Below, piece after piece: positions 2,674 through 26,658 of a DNA stretch of 45,956 bases. Positions within the stretch are counted from its first letter, which is position 1. Each line of letters opens with the position of its first letter. The notes under the pieces were generated by a model. It saw only the letters and a program-made list of their open reading frames with translations, searched no databases and had not been told where the DNA came from. Both the position numbers and the translations under genes were made by a program. The DNA is from Ruminococcus sp. (GTDB taxonomy: Bacteria > Bacillota > Clostridia > Oscillospirales > Acutalibacteraceae): positions 1-45,956 of the forward strand of contig JAFUJH010000015.1 of NCBI GenBank assembly GCA_017473775.1. The letters run 5' to 3'.

Positions 2674-5600
2674 TTACTCGATGGGCTCTCCGATGGGATA
2701 GCCTGTCTCAATAGCAGCTACAAACTTCTGGATAGCAGTTGCATCCTTGATGTTTACATTGCCTGAGCCGTCAGTATCTGATGCCTTCAGTGCGTCACCC
2801 TCAAGTGTTGAGAGCTTTGCTGTGAACTTCTGGATAACAGTTGCATCCTTGATTGTAATCTTATCGTCAAGGTCTGCGTCACCCAGGAGCACATTGCTTA
2901 CAGGCTCTGTGGGCTTGGTTGTGGGAGGTGTAACCTCACCGATATCACCTGTGCGTGCAAACTGTACTGTGTGATATGTTACATTGTTGTTTGCCTCGCC
3001 GTGAGCCTGTGACATATTTCTGTCAAACCAGTTCTCAGAATCATACTTGATTGTAACCTCGTGCTGACCCTTTGTGAGCTCAAGTCTCAGATGTGAGCTG
3101 ACCTGACGGGTGAAGCTCATTGCAGGGAATACCAGTGAGCCTACATCCTCGCCGTCAACATATACGGAACGGATAGCTGCTGTGATACCTGCAGTGGGGT
3201 CGCCCTGGTTGGAGTGGATAACAGACATCTGATATACACCGTCTGCAGGAATATCAACCTTAACGGTGAAGGAGCCTGCACCAGCCGCATCAGCGGGCTT
3301 GAATGTAGTGTTTGTCCAAGTACCTACTGTCCACTTGCCTGATGAATTGCTGTTAAGATAGAAACCTGCGTTATCCTCAACGCCTGAGGTAATATCAATA
3401 GTCTGATCAGAGCCGTTGTTGAAGATGATGTTGGGAGTATCCTTGGAGATAGAGTAGCAATATACATCCTCGCCGTTGTCGTTCTTTCCAACGAAGGTCA
3501 TAGCCTCACCGGGCCAGCTTGTGCTCATAGAGCCGTCCCAGAAGAAGATGTTAACATTGCTCCAGCCCTTGTTGTTGGTGAAGTAAACTGTCTTCTTGTC
3601 AGCAGAATCTACTGAGCCTGATACAGTGGGTGCCTTGTCATAGTAGTTGTTGGCATTTACAGTAACCTTTGTGCCTGCAGGGTTGTACTCCTTGGGAGCA
3701 GAAAGCTCTGACCAGAGACCTGTAGTCTTGTCAACTGCAACAACACTGTAGCAACCGTACTTGGTTGTGTCGATTGTGTAGGTTGTACCCTCAACATCAA
3801 CATACTCTGTGCCTGTCCATACCTTGTATGTGCAGTTTGTAACTGCGTTCCACTTGAGTGTGGAGCCACTGAGTGTTGCATTGGGAGCTGTGGGAGCCTT
3901 TGCTGTGTTCTCGTCCTTGAGGTTGATGATATCCTCTGCACCGCTGTCCTCAAGCTCGATTACGATGTAGTAGTAGCCCTCAGCATCTGCGGGAAGAACA
4001 TAATCGTTCTCTACCTGCTCGTCATTTACATAGATAGCCTTTACTGTGTCGCCCTTGCCGTGAAGCGCCATGTCGATTTCTGCATCTCTGTACTTGTAAC
4101 CGTAGATGTAGAAGGGACCTTCCATCCATTCGGGAACATAGGGGTCAAAGGTGATACCCTCTGTGGTGTACTCCATACCGAAGAGAACTCTGTAGTAGCC
4201 TGCCATAGTAGCAGCAACAGACCAGAGCTGCTGAGTAGAGTGGAGACCCTCACCTGTTTCGTAGTCGATAACCTCGTAGTTTGTCAGACAAGCTGCTGCA
4301 CCACGGATACAGGAGTTCCAGATTTCCTCAGCAAGGAGGTTGTTTTCGTTTTCGTTATTAACTGCGCCAATCATCAGGAGTGCTTCCCAACCGGGCCATA
4401 CGCCTGAATCGTGATACTTGTAGTCTGTCCAACGCTGTGCGTTCTTCTGGGGATATACAGTATTTGCACCGAAGTTTACAAGAGTGTAGTTCTCCATAAT
4501 GGAGTCTGCTTTCTCCTGACCGCCGATGTTGTACCATACTGCGTAGCCGTTACCGAGAACATCCTGCTTGTAGGAAAGGGGTGAGCCCATCCAATCAGGA
4601 TACTCCCAGGATGCGTATGTGCCAAGGTCCTCGTGCCAGAGTCTTGTGGAGATTGCCTCCTCAAGGTCTGCAGCCAGGTCTGCCCAAGCCTTTGACTCTG
4701 CCTCACCCTTACCGAGGATTGTTGCAGCCTCAGAGAGAATCTTCATTACCTGACAGAAGATAATGTTTGTGGAAGCTGCCTTACCCTCAGCGATGGTTAC
4801 GATACCGTTCTGGTCGTCCTCGCCTGTCCAGTCGCCGTAGGTCTTGTCTCTGTGGTCAAGACCGCAGGTCTCACCTCTGAAGAGGCCTGCTTCTTTATCA
4901 TAAACTACTTCGTAGTCCTGCATAATTGTGTTGGAAGCTACCTCGTAGAAGTATTCAAGAGTCTCCTCGTTGCCGTCTGCAAGATAAGTCTCCCAAACAG
5001 CCAGCATCATAATGATACGGTCTGTGGATACGGGATAGGAGCCGCCTGTACCTGTATCTTCTTCAAATGTAAGGTTGCCGTCCTTGCCTACAACCTTTGC
5101 CTCAGCACAGTTTGTAGAAATATCGGGGAACAGCCAGGACAGGATGTACTGCATAGAGATAGCAGTATCACGGGTCCATACCTTGTGCCAGTTTGTACCT
5201 GTATAGAATACATCGCCATAAGTCTCATCATAGTTGATGCTCTTGAAGATTTCATCCATAGTCAGGTTGTATGCTGCCTCTGCAAGAGGAGTATTGGGAG
5301 CGGAGAAGATGGGAGCCTCACCAAGACCCAGATACTCATAGTTCCACTCTCTGTCAGAGCCTGTCTCAGATGTAAGGATGTGGTCGCCTGTGTTAGCGAT
5401 AACACGGGAGTCATCCTCTGTGAGACCGTTTACGAACAGTGTGTAATCCTGTGCGTCAGATACATTTGTAGTTGCACCCTTGAAGGTGTCGTCGCCGTAT
5501 ACCTGAACAGCGGCATAGGTTACTTCCTCGCCAAAGTTAAGGAAGAAGCCGAAGGAGTATGCATCCTCAACCTCAAAGACAACATCGTTGCCCTGCTTTG

Positions 5601-7224
5601 TACCTGTAAGCTCAACTGTCTTGTTGTCAGCAGTTGTGAGAGTTGCAGTTGCAGGAAGTGTATCGTCTGTACCGACAACAACAATCTTCTCTACTGTAAC
5701 TTCCTTGTCAAAGCCGAAGCCTACCTTGCCCTCTGTGGCAGTAGTTGTGCAGTAGGGATCCCATGTTGCGTGCTCCCAGCCGTAAGCTGTGCTTACATAG
5801 CCTGAAAGGCCGATATCTGTAGCGGAAGCCATATCCTTAGTACCGATAACCTGAATGTTGGTGAAGTCGGAATCCTCACCTACATAAGTGAACCATGTGA
5901 TGTTCTCAGGTGTTTCAAAGTTGATGAATGCATCTTCGTTCTCCGCAATTGCATCAACAGCGATTTCCTTGCCGTTTGAAAGGATAACCTTACCTGCAGG
6001 AATCGCTAAATCATAAGCACTGATAATGATTCTGTCAACTGCATATGTGTTTGCAAAGCGGTAACCGACGCTGTTGCTGTCCATATCATAAATCATATAT
6101 CCCATAAGCTCAACATTGTTGATGTACTTAAAGGAAATCTCGCTGATTTCAGTTGCGTCGTTTGCAAAAATGATGAGCTCGGTTTCGCCCTCGAGAACGA
6201 TGTCTGCTGTGGGCTGTTCTTCGTTGATGTCGTAAACATTGTCGCCAACCTGAATTGCAGCCTCGCCGTCAAGGGATACGATGTATGCACCGTCGAGCTC
6301 GGGCTTAACAATCAGAGAAACATACTCGCCCACTTTAGCAGCCTTGAATGTGCCGTCCTTGATAAGAGCTGCGTCGGAAGCTGCATCAAAACCTGAGAAA
6401 TCGAGTGTTGTCTCGCCCTTTGCAATAGAATCTGCAGCGTCAACGGGAGTAACAACAATCTTATCTACATTGTATGTACCCTCGATGTTGTCGATTGTGA
6501 TTCTGTTGTAGCCGGGGTTAAGAGTCTTTGTGATTACAACGGTCTTGTATGTCTGCCATGCACCTGTAGAAGTGAAGTTTGCATAGAATATCTCGTCACC
6601 TGCTGTAAAGTCAAAGTAGCCGTCGTCTGTCTCAGAAGCAACAGAAATCTCAAACTTATAGGTCTGAGCCTTGTCGCCCTTAACAGTAACACCGTAGTTA
6701 AGTGAATCTCCTGCATCAAAAGCGCCTACATACTTGCCTGCAGAAGCTTTGGAATCTTCCCATACACTTACTGCACCCAGTGCGTATGTGTACTTTTCTG
6801 CCTCAATAGTCAGAGCAGAAGTGCCAAGTGTGAAGTCACTCTTTGTGTTCATGGACTCAGCTGTGTAGTTTCTTGTTCTTGTGTCAGCTGTGAACTTGAT
6901 GATAGAGTCTGCCTCGATAACGAGATGTGCGTTGTCGTTATCGTTTGACTCATGTCCGATAGATGTACTCCAGTTGGGAGTAGCAATCTTGAATTCGTAG
7001 TTACCGCCTGTCATATCAAGTACGAGAGTGTAGATTCCGTTGCCTTCGTCTACGAACTTGTACTCGTCATAACAGTTCCAGCCGTTCATATTACCTCTGA
7101 GGTAAAGACCGTTGCTTAAACTGTTAGCAGAAACAGAGACGATACCCATGGTTGTAGTACCTACAACCAGAAGAAGTGCCAGTATAATACTGAGCAGAGC
7201 TTTGAGTCGACTGTGTTTTTTCAT
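2674..7224 (-). CDS. Secreted dockerin-bearing six-hairpin glycosidase with several CBMs
   Basis: A 1516-residue secreted protein. Order seen: signal peptide (1-33); a starch-binding-like module starting LYLRGNMNGW (about 38-115); a CBM6/CBM35-like beta-sandwich (138-260); two discoidin-like modules (about 370-580); an alpha-helical six-hairpin catalytic region (about 640-1030) with WTRDTAIS, a Glu/Asp-rich GDWTGEDDQ and HDSGVWPGWE; an FN3-like domain (1110-1180); a CBM26-like starch-binding domain with VYFTNNKGWSNVNIFFW and NIIFNNGSDQTIDI (about 1210-1300); a second CBM35-like module (1318-1427); a TPPTTKPTEP linker; and a type I dockerin with two ATxIQKF repeats (about 1447-1510). The glycoside hydrolase family is not certain; the fold suggests an inverting alpha-glucan or related enzyme. 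The dockerin implies attachment to a cohesin scaffoldin, as in the Ruminococcus bromii amylosome. The start at 7224 has AGGA nine bases upstream; the upstream in-frame starts are weaker. Confidence 0.85.
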   Translation of the reverse strand: MKKHSRLKALLSIILALLLVVGTTTMGIVSVSANSLSNGLYLRGNMNGWNCYDEYKFVDEGNGIYTLVLDMTGGNYEFKIATPNWSTSIGHESNDNDNAHLVIEADSIIKFTADTRTRNYTAESMNTKSDFTLGTSALTIEAEKYTYALGAVSVWEDSKASAGKYVGAFDAGDSLNYGVTVKGDKAQTYKFEISVASETDDGYFDFTAGDEIFYANFTSTGAWQTYKTVVITKTLNPGYNRITIDNIEGTYNVDKIVVTPVDAADSIAKGETTLDFSGFDAASDAALIKDGTFKAAKVGEYVSLIVKPELDGAYIVSLDGEAAIQVGDNVYDINEEQPTADIVLEGETELIIFANDATEISEISFKYINNVELMGYMIYDMDSNSVGYRFANTYAVDRIIISAYDLAIPAGKVILSNGKEIAVDAIAENEDAFINFETPENITWFTYVGEDSDFTNIQVIGTKDMASATDIGLSGYVSTAYGWEHATWDPYCTTTATEGKVGFGFDKEVTVEKIVVVGTDDTLPATATLTTADNKTVELTGTKQGNDVVFEVEDAYSFGFFLNFGEEVTYAAVQVYGDDTFKGATTNVSDAQDYTLFVNGLTEDDSRVIANTGDHILTSETGSDREWNYEYLGLGEAPIFSAPNTPLAEAAYNLTMDEIFKSINYDETYGDVFYTGTNWHKVWTRDTAISMQYILSWLFPDISTNCAEAKVVGKDGNLTFEEDTGTGGSYPVSTDRIIMMLAVWETYLADGNEETLEYFYEVASNTIMQDYEVVYDKEAGLFRGETCGLDHRDKTYGDWTGEDDQNGIVTIAEGKAASTNIIFCQVMKILSEAATILGKGEAESKAWADLAADLEEAISTRLWHEDLGTYASWEYPDWMGSPLSYKQDVLGNGYAVWYNIGGQEKADSIMENYTLVNFGANTVYPQKNAQRWTDYKYHDSGVWPGWEALLMIGAVNNENENNLLAEEIWNSCIRGAAACLTNYEVIDYETGEGLHSTQQLWSVAATMAGYYRVLFGMEYTTEGITFDPYVPEWMEGPFYIYGYKYRDAEIDMALHGKGDTVKAIYVNDEQVENDYVLPADAEGYYYIVIELEDSGAEDIINLKDENTAKAPTAPNATLSGSTLKWNAVTNCTYKVWTGTEYVDVEGTTYTIDTTKYGCYSVVAVDKTTGLWSELSAPKEYNPAGTKVTVNANNYYDKAPTVSGSVDSADKKTVYFTNNKGWSNVNIFFWDGSMSTSWPGEAMTFVGKNDNGEDVYCYSISKDTPNIIFNNGSDQTIDITSGVEDNAGFYLNSNSSGKWTVGTWTNTTFKPADAAGAGSFTVKVDIPADGVYQMSVIHSNQGDPTAGITAAIRSVYVDGEDVGSLVFPAMSFTRQVSSHLRLELTKGQHEVTIKYDSENWFDRNMSQAHGEANNNVTYHTVQFARTGDIGEVTPPTTKPTEPVSNVLLGDADLDDKITIKDATVIQKFTAKLSTLEGDALKASDTDGSGNVNIKDATAIQKFVAAIETGYPIGEPIE

Positions 7225-7249
7225 AGTCTTGCGTCCTTTCATAATTTCT

Positions 7250-7309
7250 CTGTACAAATAAAGTACAGTTATTCAGCTTTATTTTATCATACACTTTACA
7301 CATTTACAA
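7250..7309 (-). promoter_or_regulatory. Promoter and leader palindrome of dockerin glycosidase
   Basis: On the - strand, TTGTAA (7309-7304), a 17-bp spacer and TAAAAT (7286-7281). In the leader, CTGTAC and GTACAG form a short inverted repeat at 7250-7268 around AAATAAA, which could be an operator or a weak RNA hairpin. Confidence 0.5.
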
Positions 7310-7835: not shown

Positions 7836-9542
7836 ATGCAAAGCGAAAATTTCAGCCTTTTATATCCCGAAAATTCACAGGTTGTCTGCAAGACTCTTTG
7901 CAAGGAAGCAATAAACGACTTATCAATCGACTTCCTTGTAGAGGCACTGACTTGCGACCCCTACGAGCAAAACAGCATTAAACAGCTCCTGATAAAAATC
8001 ACAGACGACGAGGAGACCATAAGATACCGCTGTGATGTATTTGAGGATTTTCTGAGGTTTCCAAAACTCCGTGAGGATTTGACAGCACTGCTTCTGAAGC
8101 TCAAGGATTTACGGGAGATTGAGCGATTCCAGAAGGACTCCGAATCCTCCTCACTGTGGCAGCTTGTAAACCGCCTGCGTGAGATGGACGGCTATGTGGA
8201 CTGCATAACTCAGATAAAAACCACCTTGGAGGAGCTTGATATCCGCTCTGAGGGACTCATTTCACTTCGTACAAAGGTACAGGCTATTTACAACGACAGC
8301 GGATTCCCCTTGCTGAAAGAAGATATAGAAACCACCCTGAAAGAAGTCAGAAATGTGAAAAGCATCACTCTGGGTGTAAACCTTGATGAAATGCTCAGAC
8401 CAAAGGCTGTAGGCGTAATCTGCCTTAATGATAAGCACTTCACCGACAGCGGCTTGCTCAAAAAGTTTATGAGCTTCGCTACCAAACAGAGCGAAATTCA
8501 CGAGGGCACAGAGGTTTCCGGCTTTACCTCCTTCCATCCTGCCAACCCCTCCACTGCTTCCTTCGGACTTGGCAAGGTGGTCACAGGTGCTCAGCAGGAT
8601 GTAAATCACATTGAAAACTCAAGCCTTACAGGTGCAGACCCTATGTCTGACGCACTGAAAAGAGTAGTGACAGATATCCTCAAACGCACAGTGAACAATC
8701 TGAAGTCTATGCTGAACAAATATGTAGGCATCAGCGGCTACTCCTTCATAAACCTTATGCCCGAGATTATTTTTTACATCCGCTTTGCCGAGCTTGCAGA
8801 TAAAATCAAGGCAAAGGGACTTCCGCTGTGCAAGGCTCAGGTCACAGCAAAGGATGACCGCACCTGCAATATCAAGGACATCTACAATATAAAGCTTGCA
8901 ATCAAAGCTGTGCAAGGTGATGACACAGAGATTGTCACCAACGACTTTGAGTTTTCAGACAAAGGCAGGATATACATCCTCACAGGCCCTAACCGCGGCG
9001 GCAAGACCACTATCACTCAGGCGGTGGGACTAAGCTTTCTGCTTGCACAGCACGGCATCTATGTGCCTGCAACACAGATGGAGTTAAGTCCCTGTGACAA
9101 CATCTACACCCACTTTCCTGCTGATGAAAACGACACGGTGGATTTAGGCAGATTAGGCGAAGAAAGCAAACGCCTGTCTGAAATTTTCCAAGTTGCTACA
9201 CGGCACAGCCTGCTCCTTCTTAACGAGAGCCTTGCAACCACAAATGTTGCAGAAGGCCTGTACATTGCAAAGGATGTAATTAAGGCTATGCGTTACTTAG
9301 GTGTGCGATGTGTATTCAACACCCATATGCACGACCTGGCACGAAACCTTGATGATATGAACAAAAGCGTAGAAGGCGACAGCAAGGTTGAGAGTATGGT
9401 AACAGGTGTTGAGGACAGTCACCGCTCCTTCAAAATCTTCATTGCTCCCCCACAGGGCATCAGCTACGCCAAGGACATCGCCGAAAAATACGGCGTAACC
9501 TTTGAAAGCATCAAAACAAACATCGACACAAGAACAGAATAA
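7836..9542 (+). CDS. MutS-family ATPase lacking the mismatch-recognition domain
   Basis: A 568-residue MutS-like protein with the helical core and C-terminal ABC-type ATPase but no N-terminal mismatch-binding domain, so it is not the MutS of mismatch repair. Walker A is GPNRGGKTT (384-392). The Walker B region reads LLLLNESLATT, so the Asp before the catalytic Glu is Asn463, followed by E464. A FNTHMHDLA His-switch segment follows at about 497. The coiled helical part spans about 30-330 and the ATPase about 360-560. Proteins of this kind in clostridia are annotated as DNA mismatch repair MutS-related, with no established role. There is no Smr nuclease domain, so it is not MutS2. The start has only a weak ribosome-binding site. 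It is monocistronic. Confidence 0.8.
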   Translation: MQSENFSLLYPENSQVVCKTLCKEAINDLSIDFLVEALTCDPYEQNSIKQLLIKITDDEETIRYRCDVFEDFLRFPKLREDLTALLLKLKDLREIERFQKDSESSSLWQLVNRLREMDGYVDCITQIKTTLEELDIRSEGLISLRTKVQAIYNDSGFPLLKEDIETTLKEVRNVKSITLGVNLDEMLRPKAVGVICLNDKHFTDSGLLKKFMSFATKQSEIHEGTEVSGFTSFHPANPSTASFGLGKVVTGAQQDVNHIENSSLTGADPMSDALKRVVTDILKRTVNNLKSMLNKYVGISGYSFINLMPEIIFYIRFAELADKIKAKGLPLCKAQVTAKDDRTCNIKDIYNIKLAIKAVQGDDTEIVTNDFEFSDKGRIYILTGPNRGGKTTITQAVGLSFLLAQHGIYVPATQMELSPCDNIYTHFPADENDTVDLGRLGEESKRLSEIFQVATRHSLLLLNESLATTNVAEGLYIAKDVIKAMRYLGVRCVFNTHMHDLARNLDDMNKSVEGDSKVESMVTGVEDSHRSFKIFIAPPQGISYAKDIAEKYGVTFESIKTNIDTRTE

Positions 9543-13881: not shown

Positions 13882-13917
13882 AAATACAGATATTTTTGCT
13901 GAAGGAGGCTTCTCACT

Positions 13918-16900
13918 ATGAATTCCAACCAATTCTACAACGCTCTGCCCCCCGTAATCCGTGTTTTTATTTCTTCTACCTTTTCAGATATGGAACAGGA
14001 GCGTAACTATTTCAACGAGCATATAGCCCCAAAAATCAAGCACATATGCGAGGAGAGAGGAGTGTCCTTCTTCAGCGTTGACCTGCGTTGGGGCATCACC
14101 GAGGAGGACCAGGTAAACGGCCAGGTGCTCCCCATCTGCCTAAGCGAAATTGACAGATGCCGCCCCTTCTTCATAGGTATTCTGGGCAACAGATATGGCA
14201 GTGTGCTGGAGTCAATCCCCGAGCAAATCGGCAACAGCCTCCCGTGGCTCACAGGCAAAGAGGGCAAAAGCATCACAGAGCTTGAGATGCTCTACGCTGT
14301 GCTTGACACAGAGACTGACAACCCCTGCAAGAATTGCTCATTTTACCTCAGATCTGACGAATTATCCGCAAAGCTGTACGGAAACACTGCACAGGACAGC
14401 CGACTTACAGACTTAAAGAACACAATCATAAACAACAGCGGTGTGCCCTACTCCCGATACAACGACCTCAAGGAGTTCGGCAAAGCTGTGTACTCCGACA
14501 TACTTGCCTGGTTGGACGCAGAGTTTCCTGCTCCTGCACAGGTAGCTAAGAGCCGCCGACTCTGGTACAACAGCGAATTGCTTCGCAATTATACTCCTGA
14601 CCCGACATTTCACTCTTTCCTCGGCAATTACTTTAACGAAAGTTCCCGCGCTCTGCTGATTTACGGCGACGGAGCCAGAGGAAAGACCACCTTTCTGACA
14701 GGCTATACCCCCGACAACGGACACAAAATCCTCATCAACTGCGGCTCTGATGACCTGTTCCTGTATTGGCCCTCCATTGCAAAGGAGATCGTCAATCAAC
14801 TGAACATCATCGACAACTCCTTAGGCATTCCGCAATACGATGTCGGTGTATCTGTGCTTTCAAAGCTTACAGAGCTTATTAATAACGAAAGTACTACCGT
14901 GCAGGACTCTGAGCTCAGCTCGGACTTCTACCTTGTTACAGATGAAGAACGAGAAAACTTCAGGCTCTCCTTTCTGCAGTGGATTTCAGCTATCAATCCG
15001 AAAGAACATATCTTCATTTTTATCAATGATCTTAATCTTCTTGAGGACGAAGAAAGCCGTCTGCTTTCCTGGCTGCCTGTCCACACAAAGAACTTACACT
15101 TTGTCTGCACCACCAACGATAACGATATGGTCGAAAATGCAGAGGCATTGGGCTGGAATTGCAAGGAGATGCCCCTGTTTCCCAAGGAGCTTGCACAGGA
15201 GTTCCTGCTGAAGCATCTGAACATTTACGGAAAGAAGCTTTCATCTGCACAGAACGAGCTTCTCCTGCATTCTGAGCTTACAAGCTATCCCGGAAATCTG
15301 AAGTCGGTTGCAAACTTTCTGATTCAATGCGGCAGATTCCATAATCTTGATAAGCTGATCGGCGACATTGCCGATCACAAGAGCCCCACGGAATTTTTCC
15401 GTTATATATACAACTACTGCATAGCTGATTTGTCTCAGCAGGAGATAATCGCCTTCCGCGCTGTGCTGGGTATGGTAAGCTACTCCTCCCTGTCGCTTAA
15501 CGAGCAGGAGTGTTACAATCTGGCAGAACAGACTGCACACATCGGTGCAATTGAATGGGCACATCTGCACAACGCCTTTGAGCAGTTCGGTATAATCAAA
15601 GGCGACTACTGGATTACAAGAGATGAGGAAATACAGAAATTTACCTGTGAGCTGCTGACAAGAGAGGAAACCTGCTACATCCGTAACTACCTGGGTGAAT
15701 ACCTGATGAGCAAGCTTCATACTCCTGCTGACGAAAGCAAAACCCATCTGCAGGTAATCCGAGAGAAAACCACCTTTGCCAAATCTGCTCTACGGCAATT
15801 CTGCCAAGCAAAAAGCTGGAGCCGACTTACAGAAGTACTGCTGGATTATGAGCTGTTAATCCATATGTCAAGGCTTAACTGGAAGGCTGTTCTGGTCAGC
15901 TGGGTTCATATCTTCCTGAATTCAGATACCGATATTCCCAAGACAATACTCAGCTTCCTCAAAAGCATAGATTTGAGCAACCCCGACAACAAGGTAATCG
16001 CCTTGAAGGTTGCAAGTATCTTGAGCGATATGAACTTCCACTCACATTCTCTGCAAGCAAAAAGGCTTCTGGGAGTATCACACATTCCCTCTGCACTTCA
16101 CAGCGAGCTGAAAGGAGTAACCCCGGAGTTTGCCACACAATACAACAATCTGTGGGACCTCAAGGAGAAGGCAGAATACCGCCAGCTTCACAAAATTACA
16201 AATGAACTCCTGCACCACTCACAAGAACTCCCCCCAGAGGCTATGTGCAAGCTTCTGTTTTTTAAGGCAGATTGCGAGAGCCACCTGAGCCTGCACAACG
16301 AGTGTCTGGAAACCTCTCACCTTTACTATCAGGCAGCACTGTCCTGTGCCAGCACCTTTGATTTACTCCGTGCTCTGAGCATACGAGGCACTGTCCTTTA
16401 CCGTCTGAATAAATACTCCGAGGCGGCGTCAGTCCAGCAGAATGTCTCGAAGCTTGCTCTCCAGGAGGGCAACCTGCGTACATACCTCAGCGCTCTGAAC
16501 ATACTGGCAACCTGTGAATACCGAAACAACAGGTTTGAAGAATCCCTCCGCCTTCTTGATAAAATCTACAGCTATTGGGCAAGACTCAACGACAAATTAG
16601 AGATATCAAACACACATCTGAACAAGTGCAACGCCCTGTACCTCAGCGGAGATACCAACGCCGCTCTGAGCGAGGCAAGACTGCTTTACAACAGTATTCC
16701 TGATGACGCTTCACCTCTTATGCGTAATTTGCGTATTTCTGTGCTTGTAAACATCGGTATTTATATGCATACACTGGGAGACAACGCTGCGGAGGCTACC
16801 TTGCTTGAAGCACTGTCTGAGGCAGAAGCTCTGGGCTCAGAGGCTACCGCTATCAGCGCTATGGAAGCTTTGATCAAGCTTTACAAAGGCTCTGACCGTG

Positions 16901-18888
16901 CTATTGAAATGTCAGAAATCGGTGACAAGCTGATGGAGCTTTTGTGGTCAAGGCAAGCATACAGACAAATCCCGGGCATTTTGAAGGAAGTCGCCGATTT
17001 TTTGCTTGTGTACAGATACAACTCTCTTGCAGACAAACTGCAAAGCAAGTGGCGTGGGCGATTTGCAAGCATCAGCGGCGGTTCCGATTTTCTTGCACAG
17101 GCACTGAAAGACAGCAGCTCTGACAGCAAAAAGCTTGATGAGCTGAAAGAGAAGCTCGCTATGGCTCGAAGTGACAACAACCTGTCCGAAGCCGCCGACC
17201 TCCTCCATCAAATGGCACTTGTCACAGATAAATCCGACGATGATGAATGCATAGGATATCTGTCAGAAGCGGCAGAGCTTTACAAGAAAATCAGTAATAC
17301 CTCTGAGCACGACCTTTGTCTGTGCGAAGCAATAACAAAGCTTATCAAAAAGGCAGAAATCCGAAACAAACCCTTGTTTGAGAAGCTTCGTGCTAAAATC
17401 ACAAGTTCTGATATCCGACAGGTAATACACCTGTGGACAAGCTTTGGCTCTTCCGGCAAAACCTCAATTAATGCAATATTTGAGAAATTCCGTATCAACG
17501 ATGACCCATCTGTAAAAAAAGACTCCGAGCAGGACAAACTGAGAAAAATCGCCTCCTATGGCAAGGCTTGCGATTATATCGTTGTACGCTGTCTGATTGA
17601 CCTTGCCTTTATTATCAGAGAACTTTGCAGCGGTGAAGAAATCGTAGAATTAGCCACTATGCTGCCTAAGGATGCAGGTGACTATTTTGCTTATGTTCTT
17701 GTTGAGATTATGACAATGAGCGCCACTGAAGATATCGAGTATCTGAAGACCGACTATGTAAGCCCCAAGGCAGAGAAGCTTCTCAGCTATTACGAAAAGT
17801 GCATCTACATCTGTGCCGAGCTGAAAACAGGCGATGTGGCCGCCCTTGCAGGTAACCTTGCACTGATGTTCCGCAGGAGGAAAGACAAGGAAAAGACCCT
17901 TAAATATCACACAATTTCCGGAGAAATGTACAGACAGCAAGGAAAAATCAAGGACGCCCTCATTGAAACCATGAACCTTGCTACAGCTTATAACGAGTTT
18001 GATAGCCCTGAGCAGGCAATCAAGCTTCTGTATCAGGGGCTTGAGGAAGCAGAAAGTGCAGGCGAAACCATGATGCAGGGTGTTCTTGCGGGCAATATCT
18101 CTGCCTTTCTGGTACGCAAAAAAGACAGAGCTTATAACGAGGAGATAATCAGATGCTTTGAAATTGAGGAAAGCTCCCTGAGAAAGTGCAATGCTCTGCG
18201 TGAGGTAGTAATATCTCTGATTAATCAGGCTATTTTCTATATGGAGAACTCTGACCTGTATGGTGACACCTGGATACAAAAGGCAAATGATGCAGAACAG
18301 TATATCAACAAATATGACCTGAGAGATTTCAAGTCTACCCTTAAACGAATCCGCCTTGCAGGAAATTACAAAGGCAAAGAGGCTGACAGCCCCAAGGCAG
18401 ACTTGACTCAGATGGAGGAAAAGGCAAACAGCCTCCTTGCTCTCAGAGATATATACCACGCTAAGGAGATAACTCCCATGGAGTCAGGCACCTGTCGTGT
18501 CAAATGTGTACCGACAGATAAACTGAAGTCAGTACCCTCCATCCTTGAATTTACTTTCACTGCTTCCGAGCCGTACTTCTTCCGTGTACTATGTGCCTGT
18601 CGGAGTGAAAGAATACGCAACGACGCCCCCGATTACATAAGCAAATATGTAACCTGGTGGAATGCAAAAAACCTGTACAAGATTTCTGTACAGGAGGACA
18701 AGGTCACAATCCAGTGTCAGTATGACTTCCAGGCAGATGACTGGGAGTCTGCCTGCAGGCTGTTCTCCCGCTTTACAGAGCTCTGGCAGGCAGATATGGC
18801 GTGCTACGGACTGATATGTCTTGGATATAACGACCTTGACATTGTCTGCAAGAAAAAGGAAGATATGCTGGAACCCTCAGATTTCTGA
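13918..18888 (+). CDS. DUF4062-STAND NTPase-TPR protein, 1656 residues
   Basis: A very large cytosolic multi-domain protein without a signal peptide. N-terminus (about 13-100): a DUF4062 domain, with IRVFISSTFSDMEQERNYF, SVDLRWGIT and CRPFFIGILGNRYG; this resembles the TIR-like N-termini of animal NPHP3, TEP1 and NWD1. Next a STAND-type NTPase: Walker A GDGARGKT (250-257), Walker B IFIFINDLNLL (365-375, Asp371) and a sensor-like LHFVCTTND (393-401). Then winged-helix/helical sequence to about 700, and TPR-like helical repeats in two blocks (about 780-1040 and 1290-1500). The last 150 residues (FTFTASEPYFFRVLC, YVTWWNAKNLYK) form an unrecognised beta-rich domain. STAND proteins are signal-responsive oligomerising switches, several of them antiviral or apoptotic. 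The gene is monocistronic, with its own promoter and terminator and no recognisable defence genes beside it. The role is inferred. Confidence 0.85.
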   Translation: MNSNQFYNALPPVIRVFISSTFSDMEQERNYFNEHIAPKIKHICEERGVSFFSVDLRWGITEEDQVNGQVLPICLSEIDRCRPFFIGILGNRYGSVLESIPEQIGNSLPWLTGKEGKSITELEMLYAVLDTETDNPCKNCSFYLRSDELSAKLYGNTAQDSRLTDLKNTIINNSGVPYSRYNDLKEFGKAVYSDILAWLDAEFPAPAQVAKSRRLWYNSELLRNYTPDPTFHSFLGNYFNESSRALLIYGDGARGKTTFLTGYTPDNGHKILINCGSDDLFLYWPSIAKEIVNQLNIIDNSLGIPQYDVGVSVLSKLTELINNESTTVQDSELSSDFYLVTDEERENFRLSFLQWISAINPKEHIFIFINDLNLLEDEESRLLSWLPVHTKNLHFVCTTNDNDMVENAEALGWNCKEMPLFPKELAQEFLLKHLNIYGKKLSSAQNELLLHSELTSYPGNLKSVANFLIQCGRFHNLDKLIGDIADHKSPTEFFRYIYNYCIADLSQQEIIAFRAVLGMVSYSSLSLNEQECYNLAEQTAHIGAIEWAHLHNAFEQFGIIKGDYWITRDEEIQKFTCELLTREETCYIRNYLGEYLMSKLHTPADESKTHLQVIREKTTFAKSALRQFCQAKSWSRLTEVLLDYELLIHMSRLNWKAVLVSWVHIFLNSDTDIPKTILSFLKSIDLSNPDNKVIALKVASILSDMNFHSHSLQAKRLLGVSHIPSALHSELKGVTPEFATQYNNLWDLKEKAEYRQLHKITNELLHHSQELPPEAMCKLLFFKADCESHLSLHNECLETSHLYYQAALSCASTFDLLRALSIRGTVLYRLNKYSEAASVQQNVSKLALQEGNLRTYLSALNILATCEYRNNRFEESLRLLDKIYSYWARLNDKLEISNTHLNKCNALYLSGDTNAALSEARLLYNSIPDDASPLMRNLRISVLVNIGIYMHTLGDNAAEATLLEALSEAEALGSEATAISAMEALIKLYKGSDRAIEMSEIGDKLMELLWSRQAYRQIPGILKEVADFLLVYRYNSLADKLQSKWRGRFASISGGSDFLAQALKDSSSDSKKLDELKEKLAMARSDNNLSEAADLLHQMALVTDKSDDDECIGYLSEAAELYKKISNTSEHDLCLCEAITKLIKKAEIRNKPLFEKLRAKITSSDIRQVIHLWTSFGSSGKTSINAIFEKFRINDDPSVKKDSEQDKLRKIASYGKACDYIVVRCLIDLAFIIRELCSGEEIVELATMLPKDAGDYFAYVLVEIMTMSATEDIEYLKTDYVSPKAEKLLSYYEKCIYICAELKTGDVAALAGNLALMFRRRKDKEKTLKYHTISGEMYRQQGKIKDALIETMNLATAYNEFDSPEQAIKLLYQGLEEAESAGETMMQGVLAGNISAFLVRKKDRAYNEEIIRCFEIEESSLRKCNALREVVISLINQAIFYMENSDLYGDTWIQKANDAEQYINKYDLRDFKSTLKRIRLAGNYKGKEADSPKADLTQMEEKANSLLALRDIYHAKEITPMESGTCRVKCVPTDKLKSVPSILEFTFTASEPYFFRVLCACRSERIRNDAPDYISKYVTWWNAKNLYKISVQEDKVTIQCQYDFQADDWESACRLFSRFTELWQADMACYGLICLGYNDLDIVCKKKEDMLEPSDF

Positions 18889-18927: not shown

Positions 18928-18968
18928 AGAGAAGCTTCTACGATTTGCAGAAGCTTCTCTGTTTTTAT
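18928..18968. terminator. Bidirectional terminator after STAND gene
   Basis: Twelve-base perfect arms (18928-18939, 18949-18960) followed by GTTTTTATT on the + strand. The convergent flavodoxin-fold gene ends at 18965, and the hairpin also serves it. Confidence 0.8.
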
Positions 18969-20904: not shown

Positions 20905-23900
20905 TCAGCGGTATCGGACTACGGGCTTTCTGGTAGCGGTATAGCCTACTGCCGCAAGCTGGTCTTTGAGGCTTGCTACATCGGGATAATCCTCAGGGTT
21001 TTCTACATCCTGAATATTTCCGTTTTCGTCTGTCTTGGCAAGCTTTGCCTCGTGGTAAATGTAGACCGCATCCTTGTCAAAATCGTGGAGCTTCTTGAAC
21101 TCAAGGTTGTTGTGCTTCACATTTGTGAAGGAGATAAAGCCCTCAACATCAATAACCACCTGATAGTAGCCGTCCACCAAGGGACACTGGGTGTAATCGA
21201 TACTCAGATACTGCTCTGTGCCGCTTCGCACCATTACCGCCTGAGTCCATGTGTACTCATCGTTTTTTACAATTCCAACTTTGATATAAGAGGGAGAATT
21301 CTCAGCGTTCATAATGCCGTTAAATGCATTTTCGTCCACATCGTGAACACCAATCTGGAGCAGATGAGGGCTGTCCCCTGTCTCCTTAACATTCAGCACT
21401 ATGGCGTAATCTGTATCCTGAGAGTTGATATAAACCTCGTTGTTGGGGCCTGCCGCAAAGAACTGCGTAAGTGAGCCCATGGAGGTTTCGTATCTGTCCT
21501 CTGTGTTTCTGTCCTCAGTCATATAGATATCACTATAGGTAAGTGTTATTGCCGCCTCGTCAGCAGAATACTGAGCCGCTATGCCCTGTCCGCCCACGAT
21601 AAGGTCTCTCAGCTCGGTGAACTGTGCACCCTTCTCGTTACCGTAGTTATCCTCGAAAACCGAACCCTGAATGGGGTTGTAAATACGGACACCGTCTACA
21701 TAAAGGTAGGTAATCTGTGTGCACACAGGTGTGCCTGTGCTCCAGTCATACAGCGGAACACCCATTACTTTGACGGTATATTCTCCGAAATCAAGCCCTG
21801 CCACACGGACAACGGGAACCTGATAAATCTCCTCGTCACCGCCGTCTGCACCGTGGTCAAACTCAGTAATCACAGGAACTCTCTGGACTCTGTTGCCGTC
21901 CTTGTCATAGACCTCAACCATAACAGTTGCACTGTTCTTGGCGTTTGTACGGCCTACAAGCTCAAAGCCTGTACCCTTGAAGGTAAAGGTTGCGGCTACA
22001 TCCTGAGTCAGAGGGTCGTTGTCTGTATCAAGAATAGGAATCTGAGTGCATACGCCGTGGCTCATCTGCACATTGTTATCTGCGGCATATGCCTTCTCGT
22101 CAAAGCCGTAGTTTACATCCTGGTCAGCACCTTGGTCGTTGCTTACTGTGTCTGCAAGACTTCCGAAAACCTCGATTGTATTCTCAGAGGAGGGGCTGTC
22201 ATATTCAACTGCCGCAAAGGTGTCCTCATAGTAAACTACATTTGCAGGGATTACTGTTACAGATTTGTACATCTCCACCTCCTGGTTGATGTTCACATCA
22301 CCCAGAGCCTGAGACTTGTCCATATTCTCAGACACTCTGTATGCCGCCCATACTCGGTCTGCACCCTCCATAAACTGAGAGGGGTCATATCTGAGGCTGT
22401 TGCCGCTGTCAGAGTAGGTGTACTTGCCATATCCCAAACCATCAGGGTCATCGGCTGTGTTGCCTCGGTCAATTACGCCGTCCTCGTCAACAGTGAAGCT
22501 TATGTTATTGTCAGCATAGGAGGGCTCGGTGTCAGTAATACCGAACATCTCCCAAGTAGTGTTTCTGCCTGTGGCAGAGAGCACATCACCCTCGGTGAGA
22601 GCCTCGTTTTCTGTAAGCTCTGTACCCAGACCGTAGTCAAGGACAAACACCCTGTCCTGAACATCGGTTACAAACACAGAGAAGGGAACAATCAGGCTTT
22701 GCTGTGCTCCGTCATAGTTATAGATAATCTTAACAGAGACATAGTATCCGCCGGGTGCAGGATATGTGAAGCGGAGGGTATGGTCTGCGTCCATGGTGAC
22801 ATGGTCATACATCATCCTCATACCTGTAGGTCCGCACAGATACATATTCACAAAGGAGTCACTGTTCAGCACCTCCTGAATGGGATAAAGCATCTCTCCC
22901 TCATCGTTGGTAGCCTCAGTAACATCATTCATAAATTTATCCAAGGACACCTCAAGCTCGTGACCGCTCCACTGATAGTACAGGGGCTTTGAGTGAACAC
23001 GCACCTGAGCATCGCTTCTTGCGTGAAGCTCTGAGCCATTAGTTGTGCCGTCAGAGTTGCCTGCCTCTGTATATGCCTTGACATTAACTGTATTTGTGAA
23101 GATTCCGTCGGACACCTGCTCCTGGGACAAGGTGTAGTAGATACCCCGTATCTCAATACACCAACCGGGCAGAAGTCCGCTGCCTGTTTCAAAGTCCTCG
23201 AATTCGTTTACTATATCAACATTGGTAAGCAGTCTGCACAGTGCTGTACCGTCTGTGATATTATCCACAGGATAAACCTCACCCTGCGGGTCTGTGAGGG
23301 TAATTACCAAATCCTGCGGGTCAAGGGCTTCGCCGTTTGCATCAGTAACCACTGTGCTCTCGCGAAGCACCAGCCCCTTGTGCCAGTCAAGTGCAATGCC
23401 GATATCAGCATCGTCAAACACAAGGCTGTAAAGGTTGGAGTTACCTTTGTTTGTAAGCTCAAAGCCATACTCTACAGGAGCATCGGAGGCAACTACACCG
23501 CCGTAGGGAATCTCCTGATTGTCCTGATATGCTGTTTTCTGTGTGCCAAGGTTAGTATCTGTAAGCTGGAAGTTTGTGAAGATTCGCATATTGGAGCCGT
23601 AGCCGTGACGCTCCATATAGTAGAAGTCAAAGGAGTAGGAGTTACCCTCTACAAGAGCAAGCTTCTCTGCTCGCTCTACCTCTTTCTCTGTATAAGCAGA
23701 GGGGTTGCTCTTTACCTCCCACGCCCACTCAACATAGTCATTAAGGTTCATTTTTGAGCCTACTACTGCGTGAGCACCGCCGATATCAACTACCAGCTCA
23801 TTGTTGATGAACAGGTAAACATCATCATCACCCTCAAACTGGAAGTAAAGCTGGTCATCTGCGTGATAGATGAACGAAGCGTTGGACTGAAGCACAAAGT

Positions 23901-26658
23901 TGTAGTTTCTGCCTGTATACTCAGGGTCGCCGTCCTTGCTCATACTGGGAGAGTTTACACCCTCGTCCATAGGATAAGGAGTCATAGTCTGATTCTGGTT
24001 GCCGTCAGCATCACGAACAGGTGTAAACGGATAGGATGAAGTATAGCCTGTCTCACTGCTTGAGAAGAAGGTAAAGGACTTACCTGCCGCGGAGGTATTG
24101 CGGATAGTACCTGCTTGAGCATCATACTCAACTGCGGACTGACCCACTGCTGTATTAGAGGAGGAGTTATCAATGAAGGTTGAATCAAAGATATATCCCT
24201 CTCTGCCGTCTGTATCGGTAACCTTTGTCAGCACCAGAGAATTGAAGGTAGTCTGGGGCTGATTGTAGGAATTCTCAAGGAAAATGGAGTTGAGCATCCA
24301 GTATGCCGCATCCATACAGGTATCGATGTTTCCGCTTACCTGACTCCAAGTGCCGATAAGTCCTGCAGATTTTGCAGAGGTATCGGCATATGTACCGTAC
24401 TCCTTGAATCTTGAGTTATTATAGCTTGAGTCTGTAGCAAGAACGCCTGCAGTAGTATAAGGGTCTGCGGCTGTGTCACCTCGCAAGAGGGACGCAAGGT
24501 CAAGCCCTGAAGCTGTATCAGCGAAGGTAGTCTCACCGTCAACAAAGTTGTAGTTATATACTACTGTGCTATCCGTGGGAGACTTGGTTGTCTGATACTC
24601 AATGGCAAGTGCTCTCTGCAGAACAAGTGCCACATACTCGACTGTCTCCTGTCTGTACTTGGGAAGCTTATAAACCTGAGGATTATCCACGCCGTCATCG
24701 GTTACATCCAACAGAATCTCTCTCAAATCTGATTCTGTCAGTCCGATGGTAGCTGTACCGAAGGTCTGCTTACTCAGCAAGGGGAAGGACAACTGCTCCT
24801 TGACCTGAGCAATGGTTGCATAGTCAATACCCGAGGTAGAGACATTCATTCCGCCTGCAGTAGCCGCAAAGGCCGGGTTGCTTGATGCCGCGTGACCGGT
24901 GGCAGAGTATCCGCCCACTGTACTGCTCAAATCAAGCTGAGGGTTGTTTATTTCTGAGGAAATAGTGCCGTTTGTGTTAGTGAACTTCATACCGCTCACA
25001 TAGGGAGCCCAGTATTTGTTGTAATCAAAAGAGGCACTTCCGTCGCCTACAAATGCCGCCCAGTCATTCTCTGCGAAGTTGCCTGAGTGCCATTCTTTGC
25101 CATTGGTACCGCCTGTGGAACGGGACTGCATTGTAAAGCTGTTGTTGTTACCCATTCGGTAAGTCTTGCCGCCATAGGTCAGGTACTCTGTACCCGAGGT
25201 GATGGATGCATACTCAAACAGCATTCCGTCAGCGGCATAATCGTAAATCTTAATGGGAAGTGTAACTGTATCGTTTATATCAAAGGTATCTGCAAAAACG
25301 CCTGACTCACCGCTGAGGGTCTTACCTCTGTCATTGTTGGCGGACTGCTTGTAGATGCTCTTGATAAACCATGTCTGGTTGTTGGCATTCTGCATAGTCT
25401 GCAGCCCTGTCAGCAAGGGAGTGTTGTTAGCTGATAAAAGCTCGCCCGTATTTGTCAGCTGATGTCCGTTATATGCAGAGATAATACGGAATCGCTCGGA
25501 AGTACCTGTGTATGTAGTCCCGTCTACTGTAATCTTGCTTGCAGGGCTGTTACCTGCATAGGTAACAGGGGCGATAATCCACCGCTCTGTCATATCAGGA
25601 TAATTTGCAGAGTCCTGACCTGACACAAGACGGATATCTGTGCCTGTGGGGCTTTGTGAGTCCACACTGCCCTGAATCTTCAGGTATTTTCCTGTTGCAA
25701 GGTTTACAATGGTGTAGAAACCGCCTGACACCTTCTGAAGCTTGAACTGCATATAGGTGTTGGTGGTTTTATCCACTCCTGTAGAAGTGTTGATAATCTC
25801 GTTTACAATGAGGGTATTGTTGCTGTAAATACCGCAGACATAGTTGTTGAGCATCTGTGTGGGAGTGGTGGTCGAGCTGTAGCCTGTAGTATCGTAGGTC
25901 TCAAGGAAGTAGGTGCCGTCCTTGAGGAAGCTGTCAGGCAGGTGGGTATTCTCCAGATACCACTTGTAGTTTTCTGAAGGTATCCCCTCGGCATTCAGCT
26001 CACCGATGGAAACCTCGGTGCCGCTTTTGGTGCTTGTGAGATACAGGTACTTTGTGCTGTCGCTTGAAAGCCTGATGTATACAGTGCCGTCTGCATTATG
26101 CTCAAAGCTCCATCTGCCTGTATCAAAGCGGTAGTTTGCCGCTCCGTTGGGGTTAGAGGTAGAAAGCACTCTGCCGTCCTTGTAGAACATCCAGTAGTAG
26201 GAGTGAACAGCACGGATTCCGTAAGACGCAGAATCCACACCTGTTGTCTTGTCAACTCCGCCACCCAGATTCTGGTCTATCTGGAGCACCATCATCTGAC
26301 CTGTGTTGTCCTTTTCTTCTGTATCAATAATAAAAGGCTCTGTTGATGTTTTGTTATTTCCGTCCACAAGGTTTGTCTCCAGCACCATTGCGGTGTCGGC
26401 GGCACTGCGGATTTTGTAGAGTCCGTCCTTGCGGTAACGGTTCTGTACATAATAAGGAGATGTAGCATCCTCTTTATTAACGCTTGCAGAGGTGTCCATA
26501 ACAAACATCCTGCTCAGGTCAAGAGCAGAAAACACGCCCACAACCAGTACAAGAGTAAGCAAACCTGCCAGTATTCGCACAAGGGGACTTGATGTACTTA
26601 TCATATGCTGAGGGCTTTTTGTATTCTGCATATGCTTTGCGTTATGTCTGAATCTCAT
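20905..26658 (-). CDS. Giant surface protein: ricin-like and fibro-slime/PA14 domains
   Basis: A 1917-residue protein. N-terminus: a Lys/His-rich start and one strong hydrophobic segment (about 29-48), a signal peptide or anchor. About 60-460: repeated beta-trefoil, ricin-B-like sequence, with RKDGLYKIRSAADTAMVLE and YLYLTST. About 900-1030: a fibro-slime/PA14-type domain with FEGDDDVYLFINNELVVDIGG and a YYMERHGYGSNMRIF segment, the fibro-slime signature. Then several beta-sandwich repeats, including one with ATFTFKGTGFELVGR at about 1560. There is no dockerin and no LPXTG sortase motif; it ends KPVVRYR. The domains suggest carbohydrate or surface binding. It is the second gene of an operon with the lipoprotein at 26662-27999: its start lies four bases past that gene's stop and its ribosome-binding site GGAGG overlaps the end of the lipoprotein gene. 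Substrate and partner are inferred. Confidence 0.75.
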   Translation of the reverse strand: MRFRHNAKHMQNTKSPQHMISTSSPLVRILAGLLTLVLVVGVFSALDLSRMFVMDTSASVNKEDATSPYYVQNRYRKDGLYKIRSAADTAMVLETNLVDGNNKTSTEPFIIDTEEKDNTGQMMVLQIDQNLGGGVDKTTGVDSASYGIRAVHSYYWMFYKDGRVLSTSNPNGAANYRFDTGRWSFEHNADGTVYIRLSSDSTKYLYLTSTKSGTEVSIGELNAEGIPSENYKWYLENTHLPDSFLKDGTYFLETYDTTGYSSTTTPTQMLNNYVCGIYSNNTLIVNEIINTSTGVDKTTNTYMQFKLQKVSGGFYTIVNLATGKYLKIQGSVDSQSPTGTDIRLVSGQDSANYPDMTERWIIAPVTYAGNSPASKITVDGTTYTGTSERFRIISAYNGHQLTNTGELLSANNTPLLTGLQTMQNANNQTWFIKSIYKQSANNDRGKTLSGESGVFADTFDINDTVTLPIKIYDYAADGMLFEYASITSGTEYLTYGGKTYRMGNNNSFTMQSRSTGGTNGKEWHSGNFAENDWAAFVGDGSASFDYNKYWAPYVSGMKFTNTNGTISSEINNPQLDLSSTVGGYSATGHAASSNPAFAATAGGMNVSTSGIDYATIAQVKEQLSFPLLSKQTFGTATIGLTESDLREILLDVTDDGVDNPQVYKLPKYRQETVEYVALVLQRALAIEYQTTKSPTDSTVVYNYNFVDGETTFADTASGLDLASLLRGDTAADPYTTAGVLATDSSYNNSRFKEYGTYADTSAKSAGLIGTWSQVSGNIDTCMDAAYWMLNSIFLENSYNQPQTTFNSLVLTKVTDTDGREGYIFDSTFIDNSSSNTAVGQSAVEYDAQAGTIRNTSAAGKSFTFFSSSETGYTSSYPFTPVRDADGNQNQTMTPYPMDEGVNSPSMSKDGDPEYTGRNYNFVLQSNASFIYHADDQLYFQFEGDDDVYLFINNELVVDIGGAHAVVGSKMNLNDYVEWAWEVKSNPSAYTEKEVERAEKLALVEGNSYSFDFYYMERHGYGSNMRIFTNFQLTDTNLGTQKTAYQDNQEIPYGGVVASDAPVEYGFELTNKGNSNLYSLVFDDADIGIALDWHKGLVLRESTVVTDANGEALDPQDLVITLTDPQGEVYPVDNITDGTALCRLLTNVDIVNEFEDFETGSGLLPGWCIEIRGIYYTLSQEQVSDGIFTNTVNVKAYTEAGNSDGTTNGSELHARSDAQVRVHSKPLYYQWSGHELEVSLDKFMNDVTEATNDEGEMLYPIQEVLNSDSFVNMYLCGPTGMRMMYDHVTMDADHTLRFTYPAPGGYYVSVKIIYNYDGAQQSLIVPFSVFVTDVQDRVFVLDYGLGTELTENEALTEGDVLSATGRNTTWEMFGITDTEPSYADNNISFTVDEDGVIDRGNTADDPDGLGYGKYTYSDSGNSLRYDPSQFMEGADRVWAAYRVSENMDKSQALGDVNINQEVEMYKSVTVIPANVVYYEDTFAAVEYDSPSSENTIEVFGSLADTVSNDQGADQDVNYGFDEKAYAADNNVQMSHGVCTQIPILDTDNDPLTQDVAATFTFKGTGFELVGRTNAKNSATVMVEVYDKDGNRVQRVPVITEFDHGADGGDEEIYQVPVVRVAGLDFGEYTVKVMGVPLYDWSTGTPVCTQITYLYVDGVRIYNPIQGSVFEDNYGNEKGAQFTELRDLIVGGQGIAAQYSADEAAITLTYSDIYMTEDRNTEDRYETSMGSLTQFFAAGPNNEVYINSQDTDYAIVLNVKETGDSPHLLQIGVHDVDENAFNGIMNAENSPSYIKVGIVKNDEYTWTQAVMVRSGTEQYLSIDYTQCPLVDGYYQVVIDVEGFISFTNVKHNNLEFKKLHDFDKDAVYIYHEAKLAKTDENGNIQDVENPEDYPDVASLKDQLAAVGYTATRKPVVRYR

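What the first reader, a model, noticed from the sequence alone, without database searches (positions are those of the whole stretch)
13918..18888. DUF4062-STAND-TPR protein: possible prokaryotic immune or death switch
A 1656-residue protein joins a TIR-like DUF4062 N-terminus, a STAND NTPase (Walker A 250-257, Walker B 365-375, sensor at 393-401), two blocks of TPR-like repeats and an unrecognised 150-residue C-terminal beta domain. This resembles the architecture of animal NPHP3, TEP1 and NWD1, and of bacterial STAND immune proteins in which the N-terminus is the effector and the repeats are the sensor. The gene is alone, with its own promoter, a strong ribosome-binding site and a terminator, so it would be a one-gene system. 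The C-terminal domain is a candidate new ligand-binding module.
Basis: partly seen in the sequence, partly recalled or inferred. Interest (0 to 1): 0.78.

Follow-up and report, generated by a model that had tools for sequence, protein, structure and literature searches.

The report
Bacterial TIR-like NADase STAND immune switch
A gut bacterium carries one very large gene that joins an enzyme module shared with the human vault protein TEP1 to an immune-type switch and a long sensor arm, so it most likely works as a one-protein alarm against viruses that destroys the cell's NAD+, although this protein itself has not been tested.

Summary
Window 13918-18888(+) encodes one intact 1656-residue protein: DUF4062 (Pfam E 1.1e-14; human TEP1 TIR-like domain E 1e-17), a STAND NTPase (AlphaFold pLDDT 89; Foldseek neighbours RPP1, CED-4, Avs3, Apaf-1), TPR-like repeats and an alpha/beta C-terminal domain without a known family. 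The immune reading is well grounded but untested for this protein. A May 2026 preprint (PMC13174449) shows DUF4062 to be a TIR-like NADase acting in antiphage defence (Swarozyc) and in TEP1; the catalytic Glu (TEP1 E1008) is E123 here, kept in 39 of 39 aligned rows. Three full-length relatives were found; effector half 42-66% identical, sensor half 18-35%. It is full-length in 1 of 161 congeners and absent from the same junction in one of them; some close relatives lie near SIR2, FRG or TIR genes. Against: this window is no defence island, no trigger is known, two TEP1 active-site arginines differ. Unplanned lead: RyR-like genes near 10 of 89 DUF4062 loci, hinting at nucleotide signalling. New variant of a known kind.

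The parts
13918..18888 (+). DUF4062-STAND-TPR-Cterm protein, 1656 aa
13957..14532 (+). TIR-like DUF4062 domain, residues 14-205; predicted catalytic E123, R92
   Evidence: Pfam 1.1e-14; 11gz_A E 1e-17 and 3e-19; E123 and R92 39 of 39; model
14284..14286 (+). codon of E123, aligned with TEP1 E1008
14533..15177 (+). STAND nucleotide-binding domain, residues 206-420 (boundaries approximate)
   Evidence: K256 39 of 39; model and Foldseek
14665..14688 (+). Walker A GDGARGKT, residues 250-257
15178..15717 (+). helical and winged-helix region, residues 421-600 (boundaries approximate)
   Evidence: model
15718..17247 (+). first helical/TPR-like block, residues 601-1110
   Evidence: TPR_12 at 857-918; only residues up to 700 modelled
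17248..18387 (+). second TPR-like block, residues 1111-1490
   Evidence: model pLDDT 86 and Foldseek TPR hits
18403..18819 (+). C-terminal alpha/beta domain, about residues 1496-1634
   Evidence: model; present in L042, L043, L044; no family
13902..13908 (+). ribosome-binding site AAGGAGG
18928..18960 (.). inverted repeat, possible bidirectional terminator

Best explanation
A one-gene STAND immune receptor. At rest the NTPase module holds the protein inactive. The long TPR arm with its C-terminal cap recognises something made during infection (or a mobile element's activity); nucleotide exchange lets the STAND modules oligomerise; this brings the N-terminal TIR-like DUF4062 domains together; [quoted passage not shown] Shown here: domain order, fold by confident prediction, conserved catalytic and P-loop residues, purifying selection on the N-terminus of two relatives, faster divergence of the sensor half, patchy distribution with an empty site, defence-type neighbours of some relatives. 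Shown by others for other DUF4062 proteins: NADase activity, abortive infection, dependence on the Glu. Inferred: activity of this protein, oligomeric activation, phage as trigger, identity of the ligand.
For: DUF4062 = NADase in KpSwz and TEP1 (PMC13174449). E1008 maps to E123 and R976 to R92; both 39 of 39, and neither lies in the peptide patterns used for the scan. N-terminal model pLDDT 89.3, pTM 0.87; Foldseek's first 20 PDB hits include RPP1, CED-4, Avs3, EfAvs5 and Apaf-1. Identity to three full-length relatives: DUF4062 57-66%, NBD 42-50%, winged-helix region 29-44%, repeats 23-35%, C-terminus 18-21%. Full-length in 1 of 161 same-genus genomes; in G020 the flavin reductase and Tex genes that flank it here are 57 bp apart with no STAND gene. 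Neighbours of close relatives: SIR2 gene 130 bp downstream (L042, PADLOC PDC-S25 E 1.7e-154), FRG gene 15 bp upstream (L048, PDC-S15 E 1.9e-42), TIR gene 4.9 kb away (L044).
Against: No PADLOC family matches the protein, and its own neighbours are housekeeping-like. Of five further window genes scanned, PADLOC scores one strongly, a SNF2 helicase 14 kb off that is syntenic in two species lacking the gene, and two weakly. TEP1 R908 and R954, of which R908 was shown to matter, are S23 and Q69 here. Human NPHP3, NWD1 and NWD2, also DUF4062 next to NACHT, showed no NADase activity. The tested Swarozyc proteins have another auxiliary domain. No trigger is known. Only 2 plasmid records, no phage record and no viral contig matched, and the plasmid matches cover 10% and 7% of the protein. 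For four of the seven close relatives no convincing defence gene was found among the neighbours scanned.
Confidence: 0.6

Rival explanations
1. Signal maker: the DUF4062 domain makes an ADP-ribose-type nucleotide that a separate partner (RyR- or SLOG-type protein) reads, as in Thoeris, rather than killing by NAD+ depletion alone.
For: An RyR-like motif (EHx[RK]Wx[AR]) occurs in an ORF within 6 kb of a DUF4062 gene in 10 of 89 loci; 4 of these 10 proteins pass Pfam's RyR cut-off. RyR is rare: 26 matches in 291 class genomes, so about 0.06 Pfam-grade neighbours are expected by chance, P(>=4) about 6e-7 by a rough Poisson estimate. In L046, a close relative, a membrane protein with a Rossmann-like stretch and the motif ends 11 bp before the STAND gene; a homologue (blastp 7e-12) precedes a distant DUF4062-STAND gene in L016. 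RyR domains of phages bind or cleave cyclic ADPR signals (PMC13232231).
Against: The window gene has no such neighbour; the L046 partner has no match in the own genome; an RyR gene exists elsewhere in it with no link shown. The direct motif control, 0 of 195 ORFs in 16 Tex loci, is too small to be significant (Fisher p 0.13 by ORF, 0.35 by locus) and from one genus. Six of the ten motif proteins fail Pfam's cut-off and five have no RyR match at E<=1. TEP1's domain made no ADP-ribose derivatives beyond the hydrolysis products.
Confidence: 0.15
2. Non-immune STAND switch: the DUF4062 domain is catalytically idle and the protein regulates a metabolic or stress response, like MalT or NPHP3.
For: A maltose-system STAND structure, 8bob_C (MalT by recall), is among the better Foldseek matches (TM by target 0.56); human NPHP3 and NWD1/2 were inactive in vitro; own neighbours are housekeeping-like.
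Against: E123 and R92 kept in 39 of 39; no DNA-binding output domain recognised by Pfam; accessory, patchy distribution; defence-type neighbours in some relatives.
Confidence: 0.18
3. Decayed or misassembled gene without function.
For: Full-length in one genome of its genus; four of seven close relatives end at a contig edge.
Against: Intact 1656-codon frame; three independent full-length relatives; dN/dS 0.08 in the N-terminus of two relatives.
Confidence: 0.03

Closest known systems
Swarozyc (KpSwz), DUF4062 antiphage NADase, PMC13174449
   Same: DUF4062 TIR-like domain as effector; catalytic Glu conserved; C-terminal part presumed sensor; single protein
   Different: KpSwz has a winged-HTH auxiliary domain that grips the phage portal; here a STAND NTPase, TPR blocks and a C-terminal domain of its own
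Human TEP1 (and NPHP3, NWD1, NWD2)
   Same: DUF4062 next to a NACHT/STAND module; TEP1 TIR domain is the only PDB sequence match at E<=0.1; E1008 = E123, R976 = R92
   Different: TEP1 carries WD40 repeats and lies in vaults (WD40 in NWD1/2 and TPR in NPHP3 by recall); R908 and R954 are not conserved here
Avs (AVAST) STAND defence proteins
   Same: N-terminal effector, STAND core, TPR-like C-terminal arm (by recall); Foldseek hits Avs3 and EfAvs5
   Different: no PADLOC match; different effector; target unknown
Plant TIR-NLRs (RPP1) and CED-4/Apaf-1
   Same: adaptor or TIR N-terminus on an oligomerising STAND core; Foldseek ranks 1-3 and 19-20
   Different: LRR or WD40 sensors, or none, and other effectors (by recall)

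Membership tests
DUF4062 (PF13271) | profile match over the curated cut-off | tested here: met
   54.8 bits against 24.7
DUF4062 TIR-like NADase | catalytic Glu (TEP1 E1008) | tested here: met
   E123; 39 of 39
DUF4062 TIR-like NADase | TEP1 active-site arginines R908, R954, R976 | tested here: inconclusive
   R976 = R92; R908 = S23; R954 = Q69. Whether KpSwz has them was not checked
DUF4062 TIR-like NADase | hydrolysis of NAD+ | not testable with these tools
   needs enzyme assay
STAND NTPase | P-loop, Walker B, sensor, winged-helix order | tested here: met
   K256 39 of 39; model and Foldseek. Pfam AAA/STAND profiles match only below cut-off
Swarozyc (KpSwz type) | winged-HTH auxiliary domain after DUF4062 | tested here: not met
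   a STAND module follows; the KpSwz sequence itself was not compared
Swarozyc (KpSwz type) | activation by phage portal | not testable with these tools
   needs assay
Avs | match to a PADLOC Avs model | tested here: not met
   0 PADLOC families at E<=1
NPHP3/TEP1-like architecture | DUF4062 + NACHT/STAND + TPR or WD40 repeats | tested here: met
   the NPHP3 domain profile matches at 8.6e-4, below its cut-off
YbjN / type III chaperone-like fold (C-terminal domain) | profile similarity | tested here: inconclusive
   hhalign probability 0.2% against three YbjN sequences, both profiles very shallow; only the order of elements is reminiscent (recalled)
antiphage defence system | protection against phage | not testable with these tools
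   needs assay

The most novel reading that the evidence does not exclude
DUF4062-STAND proteins are sensors in a wider nucleotide-signalling immune network: on activation they make an ADP-ribose-type signal read by RyR-domain partners (membrane Rossmann-RyR-like proteins next to relatives of this gene), so that the forebears of TEP1/NPHP3 were signal-making NLRs; the C-terminal domain is a fast-evolving recognition cap.
Probability: 0.13. Interest if true: 0.78.

Novelty: new variant of a known kind. Interest (0 to 1): 0.52.

Why it matters
The newly recognised DUF4062 NADases have, in the one paper found, been tested in bacteria only with a small portal-binding sensor. This gene and its relatives join the enzyme to a STAND switch and TPR or WD40 arms, the architecture of human TEP1, NPHP3 and NWD1. 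They offer a bacterial test bed for how such proteins are switched on and a way to ask what the human ones once sensed. The link to RyR-type genes, if real, would place DUF4062 in nucleotide immune signalling.

Tried and rejected
YbjN-like fold for the C-terminal domain: suggested by the sequence and by the order of elements in the model, but profile comparison gave 0.2% probability with shallow profiles and Pfam gave only chance-level hits; not claimed. A profile of the C-terminal domain in 291 class genomes found the window itself and one hit at 6e-4 in a 330-aa protein that looks unrelated (DnaD-like by eye), judged chance. Foldseek with the second model returned mostly TPR proteins in the 50 rows shown, so the C-terminal fold was not placed. 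Relatives on plasmids: 2 records, matched over DUF4062 only; one, from a Chloroflexota plasmid, is a long DUF4062 gene between two HEAT-repeat genes. Phages and viral contigs: none. Partner gene of L046 in the own genome: none, a weak negative. The SNF2 helicase at 33366-35504 scores against PADLOC DpdE/DrmD but lies in the same surroundings in G455 and G028, which lack the STAND gene there; treated as a housekeeping helicase. SLOG-type and TIR-type neighbours by motif (8 loci each of 89) are noisy: the SLOG pattern also hits Tex in the control loci and 5 shuffled ORFs. Literature: searches for DUF4062 (9 papers), STAND/TIR/TPR/nephrocystin (7), Swarozyc (0, although the preprint is held; the name is probably printed with an accented letter), TEP1/NACHT/antiphage (1), and two RyR searches. 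PMC8195603 and PMC7159879 were searched for words only. The supplements of PMC13174449 were not readable here, so whether it lists this architecture or RyR neighbours is unknown. The 2015 nucleotide-centric conflict-systems survey that I recall as linking TIR, SLOG and RyR is not held.

Full report
What is there. Window 13918-18888(+) is one uninterrupted gene of 1656 codons with a good ribosome-binding site. Residues 14-205 are a TIR-like DUF4062 domain (Pfam match 15-127, 54.8 bits, cut-off 24.7). The only solved structure found by sequence at E<=0.1 is the human TEP1 TIR-like domain, 11gz_A (E 1e-17 for the whole protein, 3e-19 for the domain alone). A STAND module follows, then helical TPR-like repeats, then a C-terminal domain. 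The window belongs to a 2.46-Mb assembly in 95 contigs.

Structure. With 39 aligned sequences (the window, 7 close relatives, and 31 that I chose from the other 72 loci), AlphaFold2 gives residues 1-700 a pLDDT of 89.3 and pTM of 0.87. The first 200 residues form a five-stranded beta/alpha domain, as the preprint describes for the TIR-like domain. Foldseek's top 20 include RPP1, CED-4, Avs3, 8bob_C (MalT by recall), EfAvs5 and Apaf-1; ORC and clamp-loader AAA+ proteins also appear in the 50 rows. TM-scores by query length are low, 0.18-0.38 in the rows shown. Residues 1111-1656, from only four sequences, reach pLDDT 86.3 but pTM 0.60: a TPR-like solenoid and then helix, four strands, helix, two strands, long helix (about 1496-1634). 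Residues 701-1110 were not modelled.

Catalytic residues. PMC13174449 (parts 1-3 of 6 read, plus passages; a preprint of 5 May 2026) shows that DUF4062 hydrolyses NAD+, that K. pneumoniae Swarozyc protects E. coli by abortive infection through E97 and is triggered by a phage portal, and that TEP1 is an NADase through E1008. Using the printed alignment, with the chain offset that puts all four named TEP1 residues on the right letters, E1008 = E123 and R976 = R92, while R908 = S23 and R954 = Q69. E123, R92 and K256 are kept in 39 of 39 rows. The scan that supplied the other rows selected for the SSTF and DLRW motifs, so the invariance of those motifs proves nothing, but E123, R92 and K256 lie outside them.

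Relatives. The named-genome scan found 125 relatives and kept 79 loci. Three are full-length (L042, L043, L044; Oscillospiraceae and Eubacteriales MAGs; 39, 35 and 33% identical) and four close ones are cut by a contig end (L045-L048). A Pfam scan of 35 proteins (window, L042-L044 and the 31 chosen) gives DUF4062 in 35, NACHT in 22, TPR_12 in 20 and WD40 in 7 of 35; the set spans several bacterial phyla and some archaea, but architectures were not resolved member by member. Against the three full-length relatives, identity falls from 57-66% in DUF4062 to 42-50% in the NBD, 29-44% in the winged-helix region, 23-35% in the repeats and 18-21% in the C-terminal domain: a steady effector and a changing sensor. 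dN/dS between L047 and L048 over 303 codons of the N-terminus is 0.08, with dS 0.84; it says nothing of the sensor half.

Distribution and site. Of 161 same-genus genomes, 4 have any match and only the window's own is full-length; the other three hold other long DUF4062 genes that match only within residues 11-149, one of them with WD40-like repeats (G025). Many of these genomes are incomplete. Of 391 class genomes, 9 match the protein and only the own match is full-length; 17 of 391 have DUF4062 over its cut-off. In G020 the two genes that flank it here, flavin reductase-like and Tex, are 57 bp apart with nothing between; in G455 and G028, whose Tex is 93-94% identical, Tex is followed by other genes. 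Of 16 Tex neighbourhoods fetched, none held a STAND match at E 1e-10, but some end a few kb beyond Tex. I did not search the junction for repeats or mobile genes.

Neighbours. In the window both neighbours are housekeeping-like and PADLOC is silent on them. Around the seven close relatives I scanned 11 chosen neighbours with PADLOC (3, 8), not all. L042 has a SIR2 gene 130 bp downstream (PDC-S25, E 1.7e-154), L048 an FRG gene 15 bp upstream (PDC-S15, E 1.9e-42), L044 a TIR gene 4.9 kb downstream; L045's HTH-TPR regulator scores weakly through its HTH; the other seven show nothing convincing (the L046 neighbour has a JetB score of 0.003).

An unplanned lead. The L046 neighbour, a protein with two N-terminal hydrophobic segments, a Rossmann-like stretch and an EHLRW motif, ends 11 bp before the STAND gene and is homologous (blastp 7e-12) to the gene immediately upstream of a distant DUF4062-STAND gene in L016. 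The motif recalls the RyR domain. ORFs within 6 kb of DUF4062 genes carry it in 10 of 89 loci (657 ORFs; six duplicate loci dropped by name) and in 0 of 195 ORFs of 16 Tex loci; this control is small and not significant (Fisher p 0.13 by ORF, 0.35 by locus). Pfam confirms RyR over the cut-off in 4 of the 10 (L070, L073, L096, L120), below it in L067, and finds no RyR match in the other 5. RyR is rare: 26 matches in 291 class genomes; a rough Poisson estimate expects about 0.06 such neighbours, P(>=4) about 6e-7. The loci come from several phyla while the background is from one class, and the motif was chosen after seeing two cases, so the figure is a guide only. Phage RyR-domain proteins bind or cleave cyclic ADPR immune signals (PMC13232231, part 1 of 6 read, plus passages). 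The main text of the Swarozyc preprint does not contain 'RyR'. The window gene has no RyR neighbour; its genome has an RyR gene on another contig, after a gene with a hydrophobic N-terminus.

Verdict. Not an ordinary gene, but not a new category either: a DUF4062 NADase in an NLR-like frame, most likely a one-gene abortive-infection receptor with a sensor cap of its own. The step from architecture to immunity is inference; the step from DUF4062 to NADase is well founded but untested here, and two of the four TEP1 active-site residues differ.

Noticed in passing
L046:599-2611, L016:9837-11870(-), L043:5560-7035(-): Proteins with an RyR-like EHxRW motif next to DUF4062-STAND genes (the first two also with hydrophobic N-termini; the third is cut by the contig end and only weakly similar); no confident Pfam domain.
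   Followed up: partly
L067, L070, L073, L096, L120: RyR domains (L067 below cut-off) in proteins that also carry AAA, TrkA-N or RelA/SpoT domains near DUF4062 genes; four of the five loci also have an ORF with a SLOG-like V(T/V)GHR motif, L120 has an LSDAT SLOG domain in the same protein, and L096 a TIR-like gene.
   Followed up: partly
L154:2299-9854 (own genome, contig C73): Closely spaced genes for a 428-aa, an 1171-aa and a 788-aa protein (hydrophobic N-terminus) and a 94-aa stand-alone RyR protein: possibly a separate signalling or conflict system in the same genome.
   Followed up: no
window 2674-7257(-), 28957-30678(-): Dockerin-like proteins, the first with CBM26, X25 and a GH-like domain: a starch-using, cellulosome-like host.
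   Followed up: no
window 7836-9542(+): MutS/KamC-like ATPase of 568 aa, below every curated NCBIfam cut-off shown.
   Followed up: no
window 20905-26658(-): 1917-aa ORF beyond the flavin reductase gene, not found in the corresponding stretches of G455 and G028; PADLOC empty, otherwise not annotated.
   Followed up: no
G481:C117 and G481:C103 (L148, L150): A congener with two other long DUF4062 genes (open frames 1339 and 1663 aa) that match the window protein only in DUF4062.
   Followed up: no
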